64,000 nucleotides of DNA from Mycolicibacterium tokaiense. GTDB taxonomy: Bacteria > Actinomycetota > Actinomycetes > Mycobacteriales > Mycobacteriaceae. Each line of letters begins with the position of its first letter. Position 1 is the stretch's first letter. The stretch covers positions 4,340,001-4,404,000 of the forward strand of contig NZ_AP022600.1 of the NCBI RefSeq assembly GCF_010725885.1. Direction: 5' to 3'. Position numbers and translations under genes: made by a program. Positions 35,425 through 46,225 of the stretch are shown one piece after another. The notes under the pieces are model-generated. The model had not been told where the DNA came from. It was given only the letters and a program-made list of their open reading frames with translations, and did not search any database.

Positions 35425-36432
35425 TCAATCCAGACGGATCGATTCGACTGTGACCGGGCGCGCCGGCCTGCCGTCGAGGTTGCCGCCCGCGACGCCGCGT
35501 TCGGCGATCTCGTCCACCGTCGCGAGCCCGGTCTCGTCGACGGAGCCGAACACCGTGTAGCTGGGCGGCAGTCGGGAGTCCTGGTAGACGATGAAGAACT
35601 GGCTGCCGTTGGTGTCGGGTCCGGCGTTGGCCATCGCAAGTGTTCCGCGCGGGTACAACACCGCCCTGGACAGGTCGGGGTCATCCGGCGGGTACTGACT
35701 GGTGGGGTACTCGTTGGCGAATTCGTAACCCGGACCGCCTGTTCCGGTGCCGCTGGGGTCACCGCACTGCAGTACCGAGAGGGAGTTGTTGGCCGTCAAC
35801 CGGTGGCACGGGGTGTCGTCGAAGTAGCCCTGCTGGGCCAGGCTGACGAAGCTGTTCACCGTGCACGGTGCGCGGCCGTTGTCCAGCTCCAGGCCGACCG
35901 CGCCGTCCGAGGTGGTCATGGTGGCCGTCACCGTGGCCGGCGCGGTGGGCACCGCTCCGCTGCGCGGGGGCTCGGCCGGTTTCGCGGCGGGCGCCGCGGT
36001 GGCGGGATAACTGCACGCGTTGCCCAGATCGGCGGGCGGGTCGAAGGCGGGCAGCGCTGCGGGCGGCGGGAGCGGGGTCAGCGGCGGGGGCGCGGCGCGG
36101 TCGTAGCGGTCCAGCTCGCTGTTGACCCACGTGAAGAACGACGACACCGCGACCACGGCCACCACCATGGTGACGATCAGCGAGTAGCCGATGATCAGCC
36201 CCGCGATCGCCAGGTTGCGCCCTTCCTGCGGGTTGGTGGCCGCGGAGCGTTTGATCTGCCACAGCGACAGGTGCCCGAACACCACCCCCAGCGGCGCGAA
36301 CAGCACGGCGGAGATGATCGACGCGACGGCCAGCCCGTTGGTGGGACGGGCCGGCTCCGGCGCGGGTTGCGGTGGCCACGGCTGCGCCGGCCACTGCGGG
36401 GTGGGCGGCCCGTAGGGCGGCGGGACCGTCAT
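35425..36432 (-). CDS. DUF4190-cyclophilin fusion peptidyl-prolyl isomerase
   Basis: A 335-aa membrane-anchored cyclophilin. A Pro-rich N-terminus (1-30) leads into a DUF4190 module with two membrane helices (about 33-57 and 75-100), a Pro-rich linker, and the cyclophilin domain (about 150-335). The latter has CHRLTANNSLSVLQCGDP, GPGYEFANEYPT and LAMANAGPDTNGSQFF. It starts seven bases downstream of the neighbouring cyclophilin and is its paralogue over the isomerase domain, which points to tandem duplication followed by change of the N-terminal anchor. Confidence 0.87.
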   Translation of the reverse strand: MTVPPPYGPPTPQWPAQPWPPQPAPEPARPTNGLAVASIISAVLFAPLGVVFGHLSLWQIKRSAATNPQEGRNLAIAGLIIGYSLIVTMVVAVVAVSSFFTWVNSELDRYDRAAPPPLTPLPPPAALPAFDPPADLGNACSYPATAAPAAKPAEPPRSGAVPTAPATVTATMTTSDGAVGLELDNGRAPCTVNSFVSLAQQGYFDDTPCHRLTANNSLSVLQCGDPSGTGTGGPGYEFANEYPTSQYPPDDPDLSRAVLYPRGTLAMANAGPDTNGSQFFIVYQDSRLPPSYTVFGSVDETGLATVDEIAERGVAGGNLDGRPARPVTVESIRLD

Positions 36433-36439
36433 GTGGTGA

Positions 36440-37339
36440 TCAGTCCAGCGCGAGCGTCTTGATCATGACCTCCTGCGCAGGCGCGCCGTCCTGGCCGCCG
36501 CCCTGCACGCCTGCCTCGGCGATCTTGTCCAGCGTGGCCAGCCCGGTCTCGTCGATGGTGCCGAACACCGTGTACTGCGGCGGCAGCTGAGAGTCGGCGT
36601 AGACCAGGAAGAACTGGCTGCCGTTGGTACCCGGGCCGGCATTGGCCATGGCCAGCGTGCCGCGCGGATACAGGACCGGCTGCTGCAGCCCGGGGTCATT
36701 CTGCGGGTACTGGTCGGTGGGGTACTCGTTGGCGAACTCGTATCCCGGACCACCCATGCCGGTACCGGCGGGGTCGCCGCACTGCAGCACAGACAGCGAC
36801 TCGGCGGTGGTGAGCCGGTGGCAGGTGGTGTCGTTGAAGTAGCCCTGCTGGGCCAGGCTGGCGAAGCTGTTGACGGTGCACGGCGACTTCGCGTTGTCGA
36901 GCTGCAGCCCGATGTTGCCCTGCGACGTGGTCATGCTGGCGCTGATCTGCGCCGGGTCGGTGGGCACCCGGCCCGCGCGCGGCGGGGTGTTCTGCTTGCT
37001 GGCAGCCTGCGCCGCCGGGTACTGGCAGTTGGCCCCGGTGCTGGCCAGCGGGGTGAACGGCGGCAGCTGGCCGTTGGCGGGCGGACTGACGGTGGGGCCC
37101 TCGTCGGACGCGGGCGCGCCCGGTTCGGTGGTGGCGGCCGACGCGGTGGTGCTGGAGCCGCCGGAATCCCGCTGCACGATCATGACGGTGGCCACCACCG
37201 CGGCGATGACGGCCACCGCGGCCACGGACCCGCCGATGATGCTCATGGTCCGGCGCTTCTTCGCCTGTTCTGCTTGCTGGCGCAGTTGTTCCTCCAGCTT
37301 GCGCTTGGCAACTTCTCGTCGTTGTTCGTTCGTCGGCAC
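36440..37339 (-). CDS. ppiB: Membrane-anchored peptidyl-prolyl cis-trans isomerase PpiB
   Basis: Cyclophilin-type isomerase, 299 aa. The N-terminus is charged and probably coiled coil (REVAKRKLEEQLRQQAEQAKKRR), then a single membrane helix (about 32-54), a Ser/Thr/Pro linker, and the cyclophilin domain with CHRLTTAESLSVLQCGDP, GPGYEFANEYPTDQYP and LAMANAGPGTNGSQFFLVY. The GTG at 37339 follows GGAGGAC by about seven bases and matches the mycobacterial PpiB start. It should act outside the membrane on exported proteins. Confidence 0.9.
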   Translation of the reverse strand: MPTNEQRREVAKRKLEEQLRQQAEQAKKRRTMSIIGGSVAAVAVIAAVVATVMIVQRDSGGSSTTASAATTEPGAPASDEGPTVSPPANGQLPPFTPLASTGANCQYPAAQAASKQNTPPRAGRVPTDPAQISASMTTSQGNIGLQLDNAKSPCTVNSFASLAQQGYFNDTTCHRLTTAESLSVLQCGDPAGTGMGGPGYEFANEYPTDQYPQNDPGLQQPVLYPRGTLAMANAGPGTNGSQFFLVYADSQLPPQYTVFGTIDETGLATLDKIAEAGVQGGGQDGAPAQEVMIKTLALD

Positions 37340-37436
37340 CGCCGATGTCCTCCGCTGAGTCGATGACACGTTGGCACCGAGTGTGCCAGCCCGCGCTGGG
37401 ACAGGGGGCTGCGACCCGCATGAGAAACTGGTCGGC

Positions 37437-37991
37437 GTGCTGATCACGGGCTTCGCCACCGGTCCGGACTCCGTCAACTGCTACCTGGTGGCCGCGGCCC
37501 CGGGAGCGGCCGCGCTGGTGATCGACCCGGGCGACGAGGCAGTGCCGACGCTGGAGTACTACTTCGCGGTCAACGGCCTCACCCCGGCGGCGGTGCTGCT
37601 GACCCACGGCCACCCGGGCCATGCCGCGTCCGCCTTCGATCTGGGCGCCGCGTGGGGCATCCCCACCTATCTGCACCCGGGGGACCGGGCGCTGCTCGCC
37701 GAACTGGGCGCCGAAGCGCCGGAGCCCCTGCTGGAGGTCCACGGCGGCGACGAGCTGACGGTGGCCGATATCCTGGTCGGCGTCGAGCACACACCGGGAC
37801 ACACCCCCGGATCGGTGTCGTACCGGGTGACTGCGGACACCGACGACGGTCTGGTCCCCGTGGTGTTCACCGGAGACGCCCCGATCACCGGCAAGCTGCT
37901 GGCCCTGGACGACCACGCCGTGGTGTTCCCTGGCCACGGCTCGTCCACCACCATCGGCGCGGCGCGCCGCTACACCATGATGGAGAACTGA
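37437..37991 (+). CDS. Metallo-beta-lactamase-fold hydrolase, degenerate metal site
   Basis: A 184-aa glyoxalase-II-like protein at the locus where M. tuberculosis has a standard MBL hydrolase. The fold is clear from [40 protein letters not shown] and [18 protein letters not shown]. The metal motif is THGHPGH, so the Asp of the usual THxHxDH is Gly. Comparison with the remembered M. tuberculosis protein also suggests about 20-25 residues are missing after FTGD. GTG 37437 gives the conserved VLITGF start. Catalysis may be altered or lost. Confidence 0.82.
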
Positions 37992-39908: not shown

Positions 39909-41123
39909 GTGGGCGTGGATGTCGAGGTCGTACTGGTGGTGGTGGGTGCTCTCGGGTGCGTGGTGGCGGTGCTGTCGGACAAGATGCGTAGTCTGCCCAT
40001 TTCCGAGCCGTTGTTGGGGTTGGTGGCAGGAATCGTGGTCGGGCCCCATGTCCTGGGCGTGTTGTCGATGTCGACGATCGTCGACGGGCAGCCCACGTTG
40101 CACGAAGCAAGCAGAATCCTGCTCGCGATCTCGGTCATGGCGGTGGCTTTGCGGTACCCCTTCGACCAGGTCCGGCGCCACGGGCGGGCGCTGCTGATTC
40201 TTCTCGGAGGCGTGTTGCCGTTGATGGCGTTGGTGTCTGGCGGTCTGGGGTGGGCGGTGGTCGGCATGCCGCTGGCGGCCGCCGCACTGTTCGGCGCCGC
40301 GATCAGTCCCACCGACCCGGTGCTCGCGTCCAGCGTGGTGACCGGAAAGGCCGCCGAGCGCGACCTCCCGGCCCGCAGCCGCCAGCTGTTGTCTCTGGAA
40401 TCAGGTTCCAACGACGGGTTGGCCTTGCCTCTGGTCTTGCTGGCGATGGTGTTGGCGGGTTCGCTGGGTGTGGGGGAGGCGCTGCTGGAGTCGGCGTGGC
40501 AGGTCGGTGGCGCCATCACGGTGGGAATCGTGGCCGGTTACCTGGGCGGCAGGGCGTTACGCCTGGGCGCCAGGCACGGGTCGACTTCGGGCGCGCCGGC
40601 GCTGTTCTTCACGGTGGTGCTCGCACTGGGGATTCTCGGCGCCGGTGGTCTGCTGGACGTGGACGGCATCCTGGCGGTGTTCGTCGGCGGCCTGGTGTTC
40701 AACATCGTCGGGACCGGGCGGGAACGCACCTCCGAGTTGTCGATCGACGAGGCAGTCAATCGCTTTGCGGTGCTACCGCTGTTCGTGCTTTTGGGGGCGG
40801 CGCTGCCGTGGGAGCAGTGGGCCGAATTGGGCTGGCGGGGAGCAGTATTGCTGGTCGCAGTGCTGCTCCTGCGGCGGCTCCCGATCGTCGTCGCGGCAAA
40901 GGGATTGCTGCAGTTGCGAACCCGGGACGCCATGTATTTGGGGTGGTTCGGCCCGGTGGGTGTCTCCGCGCTGTTCTATCTGACCCTGGAGGCCCAACGG
41001 CTGGGGGCCGACGCGCAGGTGCTCGCCGCCGGGTCCCTGGTACTCGCCGGCAGCACGGTTGCTTTCGGGATCACCGGTGTCTACGGCCGAGCGCTGTACC
41101 GACGGGCGGCAGAAGCCCAGTGA
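39909..41123 (+). CDS. CPA1-type cation:proton antiporter
   Basis: A 404-aa integral membrane protein with 11-12 predicted helices. The family signatures ISPTDPVLASSVVTGK and LSLESGSNDGLALPLVL hold the ion-binding acidic residues of monovalent cation/proton exchangers, and GPVGVSALFYLTLEA is a late-helix hallmark. It should exchange Na+ or K+ for H+. The GTG start has only weak RBS support. I do not remember this gene next to hisS in M. tuberculosis, so it may be an insertion. Confidence 0.87.
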   Translation: MGVDVEVVLVVVGALGCVVAVLSDKMRSLPISEPLLGLVAGIVVGPHVLGVLSMSTIVDGQPTLHEASRILLAISVMAVALRYPFDQVRRHGRALLILLGGVLPLMALVSGGLGWAVVGMPLAAAALFGAAISPTDPVLASSVVTGKAAERDLPARSRQLLSLESGSNDGLALPLVLLAMVLAGSLGVGEALLESAWQVGGAITVGIVAGYLGGRALRLGARHGSTSGAPALFFTVVLALGILGAGGLLDVDGILAVFVGGLVFNIVGTGRERTSELSIDEAVNRFAVLPLFVLLGAALPWEQWAELGWRGAVLLVAVLLLRRLPIVVAAKGLLQLRTRDAMYLGWFGPVGVSALFYLTLEAQRLGADAQVLAAGSLVLAGSTVAFGITGVYGRALYRRAAEAQ

Positions 41124-41142
41124 CTGGCCACGCCGGCCACCG

Positions 41143-41838
41143 CTAGATGGCCATGGCGGCGCGGACGTCGTCCTCGGAGGCGGAGCCGCCGGTGCCGCTG
41201 GAGGTGACGCGGCCCGCCTCCAGGATGTAGTACGTCTGTGCGGATTCCAGCGCGAAGCCGATGTGCTGCTCCACCAGCAGCACGCCCAGGTTGCCCCGCT
41301 GCGTCAGCGCGGTGATGGTCTCCTCGATCTCGTGCACCACCGACGGTTGGATGCCCTCGGTGGGCTCGTCGAGGATGAGCGTCTTCGGTTCGGTGATCAG
41401 CGCCCGCGCGATGGCCAGCTGCTGGCGCTGACCGCCGGAGAGCAGTCCGGCCCGGCGGGTCAGCAGCTCCTTGAGGGCGGGGAACAGGTCCAGTTGCTCG
41501 TCGATCAGTTGCTTGCCGCGCGGGCGACCGTCGGCGACCACCTGCAGGTTCTCCATGGTCGTCAACTGCCCGAAGGATTGCTGGCCCTGCGGGACGTACG
41601 CCAGGCCGCGGGCCACCCGCGCCGAGGGCCGCAGTTTGGTGATGTCTTCGCCGTCGAACATGACCTTGCCGGCAGTGCACCTGAGCAGTCCTACCGCCGC
41701 GCGCAGCAGGGTGGTCTTGCCGGCCCCGTTGTGGCCCATCACTGCGGCCACGCCGTCCGAGGGCACCTCGACACTGGCGCCGTGGATGACTTCGGACCGG
41801 CCGTACCCGGTGCGCACATCGACCAGTTGCAGCGTCAC
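41143..41838 (-). CDS. urtE: Urea ABC transporter ATP-binding protein UrtE
   Basis: ABC ATPase of the urea/short-chain-amide HAAT family, 231 aa. Walker A is GHNGAGKTT, the signature is LSGGQRQQLAIA and Walker B is LILDEPTEG. The C-terminal VEQHIGFALESAQTYYILEAGRV matches UrtE/LivF. The GTG was coupled to the original urtD stop (TGA at 41835-41837), but the urtD frame now runs past it because of a duplication. Confidence 0.93.
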   Translation of the reverse strand: MTLQLVDVRTGYGRSEVIHGASVEVPSDGVAAVMGHNGAGKTTLLRAAVGLLRCTAGKVMFDGEDITKLRPSARVARGLAYVPQGQQSFGQLTTMENLQVVADGRPRGKQLIDEQLDLFPALKELLTRRAGLLSGGQRQQLAIARALITEPKTLILDEPTEGIQPSVVHEIEETITALTQRGNLGVLLVEQHIGFALESAQTYYILEAGRVTSSGTGGSASEDDVRAAMAI

Positions 41839-42661
41839 GACGCCTCCGTCTCTTCGAGGCCGTCCGCGCCGGCGGCGGCCGTACCCAGGTAGACCTCCTG
41901 TAGACCTCCTGGACCTTGGGGTTGGCCTGGACCTCGGCCACCGTGCCTTCGGCGATCACCTGACCTCGGGCCAGCACCGTCACCGAGGTGGCGAACGCCC
42001 GCATGAAGTCCATGTCGTGTTCCACCACCACCACAGTGCGTTCGGCGCCGATGCGCCGCAACAGGTTTCCGGTTTCCTCACGTTCCTCGGCGCTCATGCC
42101 TGCCACCGGTTCGTCGAGCAGGAGCACGTCGGCGTTCTGCACCAACAGCATGCCGATCTCCAGCCATTGCTTCTGGCCGTGGGCCAGCACGCCTGCCGGC
42201 TTGTCCGCCAGATCGGCCAGCCCGGTGATCTCGAGGGCCTCCTCGATGGACGGCAACACCCCGGGCCGGCGCCTCAGCAGTGTCCACCACGAGCGGTCGG
42301 CGCCGGCGGCGATGTCGAGATTCTGCAGCACCGTGAGCTTTTCGAAGACGCTCGCGGTCTGGAACGTGCGTCCCACACCGCGCTTGGCGATCTGGTGCAC
42401 CTTCTTGCCCAGCAGTTCGGTGCCGGACTTGCTCACCGACCCGGTGGCCGACACCAGGCCGGTGATGGCATCGATGACGGTGGTCTTGCCGGCACCGTTG
42501 GGGCCGATCAGGAATCGCAGATCGCCCTGCAGCAGCGTCAGGTCCACGTTCTGCACCGCTTTGAAGCCGTCGAAATCCACGGTCAGGCCGCGTACCTCGA
42601 GGTATTGGGTGCCCATGCCGACGTTGCCGCCGGCCTTCGGTTCGGGCAGTGCGGTGGTCAT
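41835..42661 (-). CDS. urtD: Urea ABC transporter ATP-binding protein UrtD, 3'-frameshifted
   Basis: ABC ATPase paired with UrtE. Walker A is GPNGAGKTT, the signature region is LAHGQKQWLEIG and Walker B is VLLLDEPVAGM. An exact 11-bp tandem duplication (41889-41899 and 41900-41910) shifts the frame after NPKVQEVY. Removing one copy restores 271 residues ending LGTAAAGADGLEETEAS and a TGA overlapping the urtE GTG. As sequenced, the frame instead continues through urtE in another register to 41081, giving about 526 residues. The ATPase core is intact, so activity may survive with an abnormal tail. Confidence 0.88.
41889..41910. repeat. 11-bp perfect tandem duplication in urtD
   Basis: GTAGACCTCCT occurs twice without a gap (41889-41899 and 41900-41910). 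It disrupts the urtD reading frame fifteen or so codons before the normal stop. It looks like replication slippage or an assembly artefact. Confidence 0.95.
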
Positions 42662-43761
42662 GACGGCGCTCCCACCTTCTCGTTCTCGGGCAGGGGATCC
42701 GGGTCGGGGTTCTGCTCGGCGGCCTTCTTGCGCCGCTTGAGAAACACCGCCAGTCCGGCGAAGCCGGCCGGGAAGAAGCCGACCACCAGGATGAACAGCG
42801 CGCCCTGTCCATAGGTCCACGCCGACGGGAACTGTTCGGAGAACAGGGTTTGTGCCCAGGCCACCCCGATGGCACCCAGCACCGGGCCCAGCAGGGTGGT
42901 CCGCCCGCCGATCGCCACGCCGATCAGGAACGCAATGGACGGCAGGATGCCCACCTGCGACGGGGCGATGAACCCGACGATCGGCGCGAACAGCGCACCG
43001 GCGATGCTGGCGAACAGGGCCGCGACCGTGTAGGCCACCACCTTGATATTGGCCGGGTCGTAGCCCAGGAAGCGGACCCGCTCCTCACCGTCACGCACGG
43101 CCACCAGCAGTTCGCCGTAGCGGCTCTGCATCAGTTGGCGGGCCACGGCGACCACCACCAGCAGCACGCCGGCGGCGATGAAGTAGAGCATCTGCCGGTT
43201 CAGCGGATCGTTGAGGTTGAATCCGAAGAACGTGCGGAACCGGTTGAGCCCGTTGGAGCCGCCGAGCCCGGTCTGCCCGATCAGCAGGATGGCCAGTGCT
43301 GCCGCCAGCGCCTGCGACAGGATGGCGAAGTACGCGCCCTTCACCCGGCGCTTGAACACACCGAAGCCGAGCGCCGCCGCGATACCCGCGGGGACGATGA
43401 GAATGGCCAACAATGTCACCAGGGGAGAGGCGAACGGCGCCCAGTAGCCGGGCAATTCCCGGGTGCCCTGGATCTGCATGAAGTCGGGCACGTCGTCGCC
43501 GAGCAGTTGGGCGTCGGCGATCTTGAGGTGCATGGCCATCATGTAGCCGCCGAGGCCGAAGAACACCCCCTGGCCCAGCACCAGCATGCCGCCGCGGCCC
43601 CACGCCAGCCCGATGCCCACGGCGACGATGGCGAAGCACAGGAACCGTCCCAGCAGACTGAGCCGGAAATCGGACAGGACCGCGGGCATCACTCCGAACA
43701 GCAGTACCGCCGCCACGCCGAAACCGGCCCAGGTCTGCCACCTACCGAGGACGCGCGTCAT
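42658..43761 (-). CDS. urtC: Urea ABC transporter permease UrtC
   Basis: Branched-chain-amino-acid-type permease, 367 aa, with about ten membrane helices. Family segments GLAWGRGGMLVLGQGVFFGLGGYMMAMHLK and GYDPANIKVVAYTVAALFASIAGALFAP are characteristic of UrtC. The polar tail after LKRRKKA is cytoplasmic. The start overlaps the urtB stop and the stop overlaps the urtD start, each by 4 bp. Confidence 0.93.
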   Translation of the reverse strand: MTRVLGRWQTWAGFGVAAVLLFGVMPAVLSDFRLSLLGRFLCFAIVAVGIGLAWGRGGMLVLGQGVFFGLGGYMMAMHLKIADAQLLGDDVPDFMQIQGTRELPGYWAPFASPLVTLLAILIVPAGIAAALGFGVFKRRVKGAYFAILSQALAAALAILLIGQTGLGGSNGLNRFRTFFGFNLNDPLNRQMLYFIAAGVLLVVVAVARQLMQSRYGELLVAVRDGEERVRFLGYDPANIKVVAYTVAALFASIAGALFAPIVGFIAPSQVGILPSIAFLIGVAIGGRTTLLGPVLGAIGVAWAQTLFSEQFPSAWTYGQGALFILVVGFFPAGFAGLAVFLKRRKKAAEQNPDPDPLPENEKVGAPS

Positions 43762-44642
43762 ACGAGACTCCTTGTCCGAACGGTGAACAGGCCCTGCGGA
43801 CGGACCTGCAGGAAGATCACGATGACCACGAACAGGATCACCTTGGCCAGCGAGGCAGTGGTGTTGTACTCGATGAACGAGTTCAGGAAACCGATGCCGA
43901 AGGCGGCGATGACGGTGCCCTTGATCTGGCCCAGCCCACCCACCACGACCACCAGGAAGGCGTCGATCAGGTAGCTCTGCCCGATGGTGGGGCTGGTGGA
44001 TCCGATCATCGTCAGCGCCACCCCGGCCACCCCGGCCAGGCCGGAGCCGATGAAGAACGTGGTGATGTCGGTTTTGCGCGAGGAGATGCCGCTGGTCTCC
44101 GCCAGGTCGCGGTTCTGTACCACCGCCCGGATGCGTCGACCCATCGGGCTGACCTTCAAGACGACGGCCAGCACGGTCACGCACACCACGGCCAGCACCA
44201 GGATGAACAGGCGGGTCTTGGGCACCACCGCGCCCATGATGTCGAAGCCACCCGAAAGCCACTGCGGTGCAATGACGTTGACCGCCGGTGCGCCGAAGAT
44301 GTCCCGCGCCACCTGCTGCAGGATCAGGCCGACGCCGAAGGTCACCAACAGGGTGTCCAACGGCCGGTCGTACATCCGCTGTATCAGTGTCACCTCCAGC
44401 AGCACGCCGAGTGCCCCGCCGATGACAAAGCCCACGATCAACGAGATGAACAGGGAGACACCGGCGTTGGAGACGATCTGCTGCACCACGAACGCGGTGT
44501 AGCAGCCTGCCATGATGAACTCACCGTGCGCCATGTTGATGACGCCCATCTGGCCGAAGGTCAACGACAATCCGAGAGCAGCCAGCAACAGGATCGAGCC
44601 GAGGCTCAATCCTGTTGCCAGCTGTCCGATCAGGACATCCAT
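43758..44642 (-). CDS. urtB: Urea ABC transporter permease UrtB
   Basis: LivH-type permease, 294 aa, with about eight membrane helices. The N-terminus has GLSLGSILLLAALGLSLTFGQMGVINMAHGEFIM, and the cytoplasmic loop MGRRIRAVVQNRDLAETSGI contacts the ATPases. GGLGQIKGTVIAAFGIGFLN is a family hallmark. It lies 37 bases after urtA. Confidence 0.94.
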   Translation of the reverse strand: MDVLIGQLATGLSLGSILLLAALGLSLTFGQMGVINMAHGEFIMAGCYTAFVVQQIVSNAGVSLFISLIVGFVIGGALGVLLEVTLIQRMYDRPLDTLLVTFGVGLILQQVARDIFGAPAVNVIAPQWLSGGFDIMGAVVPKTRLFILVLAVVCVTVLAVVLKVSPMGRRIRAVVQNRDLAETSGISSRKTDITTFFIGSGLAGVAGVALTMIGSTSPTIGQSYLIDAFLVVVVGGLGQIKGTVIAAFGIGFLNSFIEYNTTASLAKVILFVVIVIFLQVRPQGLFTVRTRSLV

Positions 44643-44679: not shown

Positions 44680-45957
44680 CTAGCCGGACAGCCCGGCGGC
44701 CCACGGGTAGGACTTCAGGAACGGATCCGGCTCGATGGGGCCGGGTGACTCCCAGACGGTGTAGATCAGGCCGTCGGGCCGGATCTCGCCGATGCGGGCG
44801 GTCTTGGTGATGTGGTGGTTCTCGCCGTCGATGGTGACCAGACCCTCGGGGGCGTCGAAAGTCACTCCGTCGGCGTTGTCCTGGATGGACTTGGTGTCGA
44901 AGGCGCCGGCCTTCTCGACGGTGTTCTTCCAGAGGTAGACCGAGGTGTAGGCCGCCTCCATGGGATCGGAGGTGGGCTTGTTGGCACCGTAGGCCGCCTT
45001 GTACGCGTCGACGAACGCCTTGTTCACCGGGGTGTCGATGGTCTGGTAGTAGTTCCAGGCGGTCAGCTGACCGGTGATGTTCTCCACCCCGATGCCGCCG
45101 ACCTCTTCCTCGGCGATGGACACCGAGACCACCGGCATCTCCTGCGGGGTCAGGCCCACGTTCTTGTACTCGCGGAAGAACGCCACGTTCGAGTCGCCGT
45201 TGAGGGTGTTGAAGACCGCGTCGGCGTCGGCGGTACGGACCTTGTTGACGATGGTCGAGAAGTCCGTCGAGCCCAGCGGGGTGTAGTCCTCGCCCTTGAT
45301 CTCGATGCCGTTGGCCTCGGCGTACGCCTTGATGATGCGGTTGGCGGTCTGCGGGAACACGTAGTCACTGCCCACCAGGTACAGGGACGTCACGCCCTGC
45401 TCCTTCAGGTAGTCCAACGCGGGCACGATCTGCTGGTTGGTGGTGGCACCGGTGTAGAAGATGTTGGGTGAGGACTCCAGGCCCTCGTACTGCACGGGGT
45501 AGTACAGCAGCGAGTTGGCGCTCTCGAACACCGGCAGCATGGCCTTGCGGCTGGAGGAGGTCCATCCGCCGAAGACCGCGGCCACACAGTCGCTGCTGAT
45601 CAGCTTCTCGGCCTTCTCGGCGAACACCGTGGGCTCGGAGGCGCCGTCTTCCCCGATGAGTTCGATCTGCTTGTCCAGCACACCGCCGTCGGCGTTGATC
45701 TCGTCGACGGCGAGCTTGATCGCGTCACGCACGGTGACCTCGGAGATGGCCATGGTGCCCGACAGCGAGTTCAGCGATCCGACCTTGATGGTCGGGCTCT
45801 CGGTGTCGACGCACGAGGCCGCCTCGGCGGCAGTTCCGGTGTCACTGGCTTTGCTGCCGCAGCCGACCAGTACCAGGCTGGTGGCGAACAGGACGCCGCC
45901 GGCTGCCACAGCCGACCGTTTCAGCGATGAGCGCTGGGGACGCACAGATCTGCGCAT
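44680..45957 (-). CDS. urtA: Urea ABC transporter substrate-binding lipoprotein UrtA
   Basis: Periplasmic-type binding lipoprotein, 425 aa. The signal peptide ends at lipobox LVGC (Cys about residue 33). Diagnostic UrtA segments are [55 protein letters not shown] and [17 protein letters not shown] 45957 is preceded by GAAAGG; a longer frame has no better RBS. It leads the urtABCDE operon. Nitrogen control by GlnR is expected from other mycobacteria, but I could not find a convincing site. Confidence 0.95.
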
Positions 45958-46225
45958 CGAGAGCCTTTCATGAAGAGTGAACACGGCTCGCAACCAGAAA
46001 AATCCTCGTGAAAAGGCCTGTCGCGGTCCGCCTGACACCCCCCGCGGGTGCCGAAAAGGAAACTAGGGCCGTTATGTTTCTGGGAAATATCTGTGTGTCA
46101 CGAACGCATTAACCTGGTGGCCACGTGGTGTTGACCTGATGTTCGACAGCATGGCTATCGGCTTAGCTGGTTGCTGGGTCGGCGCCGCACCGAGGCGGTG
46201 TAACGATCGGGTAGCGTCGGCAGAT

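What the first reader, a model, noticed from the sequence alone, without database searches (positions are those of the whole stretch)
41835..42661. 11-bp tandem duplication shifts the frame of urtD and uncouples it from urtE
GTAGACCTCCT is present twice in direct succession (41889-41910). Deleting one copy gives exactly 272 codons with a TGA that overlaps the urtE GTG, the arrangement used elsewhere in this operon. As sequenced, UrtD loses about 15 C-terminal residues and reads through urtE out of frame for about 250 more codons. This could change urea uptake or be a slippage-prone phase-variable site.
Basis: seen in the sequence. Interest (0 to 1): 0.78.

Follow-up and report, generated by a model that had tools for sequence, protein, structure and literature searches.

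The report
Recent 11-bp repeat breaks urtD frame
In this mycobacterial genome an 11-letter stretch near the end of a urea-importer gene is present twice in a row, which shifts the gene's reading frame and would likely disable the importer; none of the 82 relatives read at that spot carries the second copy.

Summary
GTAGACCTCCT stands twice head to tail at 41889-41910, near the 3' end of urtD (minus strand), in an otherwise intact urtABCDE operon of a Mycolicibacterium-like chromosome. As sequenced, UrtD keeps 254 residues (ending VQEVY), then reads 272 foreign residues across all of urtE to a stop at 41081. In 82 of 82 relatives read at the junction the protein continues YLG without a second copy; the doubled pattern is in 1 of 198 genus genomes, this one. 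urtD and urtE show low dN against dS, so the gene was kept working over the divergence compared. The break removes L and G of the YLG end. In the related ATPase LptB, alanine at Y, L or G each abolishes function, so loss of UrtD function is the likely outcome, with less UrtE because ribosomes no longer stop at its start. Assembly or sequencing error is the main rival; reads were not available. Phase variation is not supported. One new point: the shifted frame reads the second copy as AGG-AGG-UCU, a known +1 slip sequence, and the +1 frame runs without a stop into urtE. Mostly ordinary.

The parts
41889..41910 (-). two head-to-tail copies of AGGAGGTCTAC (coding strand); first-read copy 41910-41900, second 41899-41889
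41081..42661 (-). urtD as sequenced: 526 aa, residues 1-254 UrtD, residues 255-526 foreign (24% Arg)
   Evidence: first 250 residues pass TIGR03411 (315.3 bits, cut-off 304.1)
41894..41899 (-). tandem AGG-AGG codons (255-256) met in the shifted frame, followed by UCU
41143..41838 (-). urtE, intact, GTG start, GGAGG a few bases upstream; its frame is open upstream to 41955, across the repeat
41835..41837 (-). TGA overlapping the urtE GTG, not in the frame that urtD ribosomes now reach
42658..43761 (-). urtC; ATGA overlap with urtD and with urtB
   Evidence: scored from 43737
43758..44642 (-). urtB
   Evidence: TIGR03409 403.4 bits, cut-off 250.3
44680..46038 (-). urtA
   Evidence: TIGR03407 583.2 bits, cut-off 492.75

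Best explanation
urtD of this genome carries an 11-bp tandem duplication that shifts its reading frame after residue 254, and this likely inactivates the UrtABCDE urea importer. Shown: the repeat, the shift, the 272-residue foreign tail running over urtE, neighbours that pass their family cut-offs, absence of the repeat in the relatives examined, and constraint on urtD and urtE over the divergence compared. Inferred: UrtD loses the L and G of the YLG end that is needed in the related LptB, so the ATPase would be inactive or poisonous to the complex; urtE, no longer preceded by a terminating ribosome and overrun by elongating ones, would be made less. Inferred origin: one replication-slippage event, recent enough that nothing else in the operon has decayed, in an operon that most genomes of the genus sample lack.
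For: Doubled pattern in 1 of 198 genus genomes. 82 of 82 relatives read at the junction continue YLG without a second copy. dN 0.03-0.07 against dS 0.53-0.95 in urtD over five relatives. UrtA, B, C, E and the first 250 residues of UrtD pass their NCBIfam cut-offs. The PF12399 match falls from 46.7 bits (positions 1-26 of 27, relative P0001) to 33.9 (1-21 of 27). LptB: alanine at Y234, L235 or G236 abolished function and such variants were dominant-negative; a frameshift allele that kept LptB whole but added 34 residues was only partly functional (PMC6703430, passages). P0001 has YLG at 253-255 and its alignment to LptB 6mbn ends at 256/237, which puts YLG on LptB 234-236 if that end is ungapped. 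By my count of the rows, 77 of 197 other genomes have a full urtD orthologue, so absence is tolerated in the genus.
Against: No reads, transcripts or proteins were available, so an error in the assembly is possible. UrtD keeps the ATPase core and Y254, and the as-sequenced protein still passes the PF12399 cut-off (33.9 against 25.5 bits), so partial activity is possible. The LptB paper says its C-terminal region is only partly conserved in the branched-chain amino acid ATPases, so the analogy is not a test. One metagenome protein, P0157, reads YRG. urtE has its own GGAGG upstream. The nearest genome found is only 84% identical in DNA here, so the age of the event is poorly bounded. By composition alone about one such repeat is expected per 400 kb.
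Confidence: 0.6

Rival explanations
1. The second copy is an assembly, finishing or polishing error, and the living strain has a normal urtD.
For: The operon is otherwise intact and constrained. The repeat is private to one assembly among those examined. A second ABC ATPase gene of this chromosome, near 4,690,440, also changes frame, with no tandem repeat there; this fits a background of small errors, and equally real pseudogenes.
Against: No excess of out-of-frame tandem repeats: 0 with unit 10 or more in a 400-kb sample of this genome, 1 in 400 kb of G167, against 1.0 and 0.67 expected from resampling. An exact 11-bp duplication is not the usual homopolymer-type error (general knowledge). 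The genome is one contig, 100% complete by the tool's figure.
Confidence: 0.27
2. The shifted frame is partly rescued by translation: ribosomes slip +1 at AGG-AGG-UCU and make a UrtD-UrtE fusion with two ATPase domains.
For: The second copy is read as AGG-AGG-UCU; the urtE frame is open from 41955 through the repeat to the end of urtE. AGG is 2.84 per 1000 codons and AGG-AGG occurs 2 times in 108,638 sampled codons, both outside the window. The title of Spanjaard and van Duin 1988 reports 50% frameshift at AGG-AGG (seen in a reference list). Metagenome proteins P0122 and P0197 read UrtD and UrtE as one chain.
Against: AGG is only moderately rare here (14th rarest codon), and slippage at AGG-AGG in E. 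coli depends on expression level (title of Gurvich 2005, reference list). RNA folding at the junction is no better than shuffles (z 0.31). In 24 of 34 relatives without any repeat the corresponding frame is open for 242 or more codons, so the openness is no sign of selection. The fusion would still lack the YLG end.
Confidence: 0.06
3. The two copies are an unstable on/off switch (phase variation) of urea uptake.
For: A perfect direct repeat can lose a copy by slippage (general knowledge), and the relatives read have one copy.
Against: Two copies only; 0 of 82 relatives read have two, and 0 of 197 other genomes match the doubled pattern. Known phase-variable tracts usually have many short units (general knowledge).
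Confidence: 0.05

Closest known systems
Urea ABC transporter ATPase UrtD (TIGR03411) in urtABCDE operons
   Same: First 250 residues pass the equivalog cut-off; operon neighbours pass theirs
   Different: Frame lost after residue 254; no YLG end; 272-residue foreign tail; no in-frame stop at the urtE start
LptB C-terminal region (YLG end, PF12399), PMC6703430
   Same: Related ATPases with the same terminal motif; loss of Y, L or G there abolishes function, extensions impair it (passages)
   Different: LptB exports LPS; the functional tests were made there, not in UrtD, and the region is only partly conserved between them
Frameshift alleles and slippage at rare AGG codons (rpoB CCC-AGG-C, PMC7022156, passages; AGG-AGG, Spanjaard and van Duin 1988, title only)
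   Same: An indel brings rare AGG codons into the frame being read
   Different: In rpoB the slip restores the original frame and was measured; here +1 leads into urtE and is untested
Metagenome UrtD protein P0037
   Same: Also leaves the frame just before VQEVY and enters a matching shifted frame (GCRRSTS...)
   Different: Shift lies a few codons earlier; its DNA was not seen; unnamed source, one contig

Membership tests
UrtD (TIGR03411) | score above the curated cut-off | tested here: met
   315.3 bits against 304.1, residues 1-250 only; the whole 526-aa reading was not scored against it
UrtD (TIGR03411) | complete C-terminal YLG end, as in relatives | tested here: not met
   YRR instead of YLG; 82 of 82 relatives read have YLG
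UrtD (TIGR03411) | place in a urtABCDE operon | tested here: met
   urtA, B, C, E pass their cut-offs
Phase-variable repeat locus | repeat tract present with varying copy number among relatives | tested here: not met
   0 of 82 junctions with two copies; doubled pattern in 0 of 197 other genomes
Phase-variable repeat locus | mixed alleles in a clonal culture | not testable with these tools
   no reads
Programmed ribosomal frameshift | slip-prone codons in the frame that ribosomes read | tested here: met
   AGG-AGG-UCU at codons 255-257; slip-proneness itself is from the literature on E. coli
Programmed ribosomal frameshift | conservation of the shift site and its frames | tested here: not met
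   relatives read these bases in the original frame; site private to this genome among those examined
Programmed ribosomal frameshift | stimulating RNA structure | tested here: not met
   z 0.31 against shuffles for 111 nt around the junction
Programmed ribosomal frameshift | measured frameshift product | not testable with these tools
   needs a reporter or peptides
Translationally coupled gene pair | stop of the first gene at or next to the start of the second, in the frame in use | tested here: not met
   as-sequenced stop at 41081, beyond urtE; in relatives the two lie from 1 base before to 11 bases after in 77 of 80, 3 not determined

The most novel reading that the evidence does not exclude
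The duplication did not simply kill urtD: in one step it placed an SD-like AGGAGG five bases upstream of tandem AGG-AGG codons, making a +1 slip site whose product is a single UrtD-UrtE double ATPase, while the unslipped product is a dead-end tail. A de novo recoding site and gene fusion born from one slippage event.
Probability: 0.05. Interest if true: 0.65.

Novelty: new member of a known kind. Interest (0 to 1): 0.24.

Why it matters
If real, it is a clean example of a gene caught soon after breaking: constrained before, lost by one short duplication, with a possible polar effect on its partner. It also gives a natural test of whether the YLG end shown to matter in LptB matters in the urea and amino-acid transporter ATPases. 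If it is an error, it is a warning for the annotation of this genome.

Tried and rejected
Phase variation: rejected because no other genome examined has two copies. The pattern allows 2 mismatches and would miss a doubled copy of a diverged unit; the junction readings cover that. Systematic tandem-repeat artefact of the assembly: not supported by a 400-kb sample. A functional meaning of the long open tail: rejected; the matching shifted frame in 34 relatives is open for 10 to 267 codons, and in one to the end of the locus, without any repeat. New start codon after the doubled AGGAGG: no ATG, GTG or TTG in the next 22 bases. RNA structure at the junction: none beyond shuffles. Paper searches: urtD with frameshift, 0 papers; urtD with urea ABC transporter and mycobacterium, 2 papers, listing only, titles on other subjects; searches on tandem duplications, frameshift suppression, urt mutants and coupling gave listings, of which I opened passages of PMC4222082 and PMC6603209 (not used). 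The review PMC5009743 was opened for AGG-AGG; the held part has no such passage. Structure prediction of the as-sequenced protein was started but had not finished at any of eight later looks and is not used.

Full report
What is there. On the minus strand of the window the urea-importer operon urtA-urtB-urtC-urtD-urtE runs from 46038 to 41143. UrtA, UrtB, UrtC, UrtE and the first 250 residues of UrtD pass their NCBIfam cut-offs. Near the 3' end of urtD the 11-mer AGGAGGTCTAC stands twice head to tail (41910-41889). Eleven is not a multiple of three, so the frame changes after the first copy. Residues 1-254 are UrtD, ending VQEVY; 272 foreign residues follow, 24% arginine, across the whole of urtE to a stop at 41081. 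The TGA that overlaps the urtE GTG is not in that frame. urtB-urtC and urtC-urtD overlap by ATGA.

Where it comes from. The genome is one contig of 6,328,149 bp. The best named matches to UrtD are Mycolicibacterium species (the first listed, M. neoaurum, 90%; the tool says that records of the genome itself may be left out). This is a Mycolicibacterium-like organism, species unknown.

Is it more than chance. Perfect tandem repeats with a unit of 10 or more, not a multiple of three, number 1 in the window (0.2 expected), 0 in 400 kb sampled from the same genome (1.0 expected) and 1 in 400 kb of relative G167 (0.67 expected) (order-1 random resampling). By composition alone the repeat is thus uncommon but not extraordinary. 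The comparison decides. The doubled pattern, with up to 2 mismatches, is in 1 of 198 genus genomes, this one. By my count of the rows, 77 of the 197 others have a full urtD orthologue, and the remaining ones match only as more distant ATPases. I read the junction in all 77 and in 5 more from a search of 396 genomes, which listed further orthologues that I did not read. The script found the junction in 80 of 82; the other 2 were read separately. All 82 continue YLG; of the 80, 75 read YLGTAAA; no second copy was seen. Five named loci also read intact; some may be the same genomes.

Age. In five relatives compared, dN is 0.03-0.07 with dS 0.53-0.95 for urtD residues 1-254, and dN 0.03-0.09 with dS 0.56-1.05 for urtE. 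The genes were constrained over that divergence. The nearest genome found is 84% identical in DNA here, so no close sister dates the event.

What it would do. PF12399, the short C-terminal family of these ATPases, is matched over positions 1-26 of 27 in relative P0001 (46.7 bits) and over 1-21 in the as-sequenced protein (33.9 bits, still above the cut-off of 25.5). Lost are the L and G of YLG and the tail behind. In LptB, a related ATPase, the C-terminal helix and loop sit at the dimer interface; alanine at Y234, L235, G236 or F239 abolished function, such variants were dominant-negative, and a frameshift allele that kept the protein whole but added 34 residues was only partly functional (PMC6703430, passages). 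The same paper calls the region only partly conserved in branched-chain amino acid transporters. P0001 has YLG at 253-255, and its alignment to LptB 6mbn ends at 256/237, which places YLG on LptB 234-236 if that end is ungapped. The alignment to the branched-chain amino acid ATPase 1g9x ends on the same motif (YIG there). By analogy UrtD here is likely inactive. For urtE, loss of the overlapping stop removes coupling, and ribosomes reading the tail pass over its start; it keeps a GGAGG close upstream, so some UrtE may still be made. In relatives the urtD stop and the urtE start lie from 1 base before to 11 bases after each other in 77 of 80, with 3 not determined. The functional steps are inferred.

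A curiosity. The conserved codons CAG-GAG-GTC of QEV, read one base later, are AGG-AGG-TC. The shifted frame therefore meets AGG-AGG-UCU at codons 255-257, with the first copy's AGGAGG five bases upstream. AGG-AGG is a known slip sequence in E. coli (title of Spanjaard and van Duin 1988, seen in a reference list; the paper is not held), and a rare AGG codon enabled rescue of a frameshifted rpoB there (PMC7022156, passages). A +1 slip here enters the urtE frame, which is open from 41955 to the urtE stop, and would give a UrtD-UrtE fusion. 63 of 80 relatives carry AGGAGG at this place but read it in the other frame. AGG is 2.84 per 1000 codons in 254 sampled ORFs, and AGG-AGG occurs 2 times in 108,638 codons, both outside the window; the as-sequenced urtD was not in that sample. 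I give the slip a low probability.

Against the main reading. A second ABC ATPase gene of the chromosome, near 4,690,440, also changes frame, without a tandem repeat there. So small frame breaks, real or from sequencing, are not unique to urtD. Without reads the error explanation keeps about a quarter of the weight. The genome has a urease alpha match (PF00449) and one UrtA above the cut-off among 8 matches, so no full second Urt system was found by the UrtA and UrtE models; a UrtE-like ATPase below the cut-off (219.7 bits against 285.8) lies at the start of the contig, beside ORFs that look like permeases by eye.

Noticed in passing
L221 361-660 (G000:C1 about 4690260-4690560): A second ABC ATPase gene of this chromosome changes reading frame shortly after its Walker A motif, with no tandem repeat there.
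   Followed up: partly
L223 2-3977 (G000:C1, first 4 kb of the contig): An ABC transporter cluster with a UrtE-like ATPase (219.7 bits, below the UrtE cut-off) and ORFs that look by eye like a second ATPase, permeases and a binding protein.
   Followed up: partly
P0037 and P0102: Two UrtD proteins of unnamed source leave the frame just before or a little upstream of VQEVY; the P0037 tail resembles the window's foreign tail.
   Followed up: partly
P0122, P0197, P0121: Proteins of about 510 aa from unnamed sources that read UrtD and UrtE as one chain; P0121 passes through what looks like an out-of-frame stretch first.
   Followed up: partly
window 41889-41911 and relatives: 63 of 80 relatives carry AGGAGG in the QEV codons of urtD, so any shift into that frame would meet tandem AGG codons.
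   Followed up: yes
P0157: A UrtD-like protein of unnamed source with YRG in place of YLG.
   Followed up: no
window 35425-37477: Two neighbouring ORFs for similar proteins that look like peptidyl-prolyl isomerases (name recalled, not searched).
   Followed up: no
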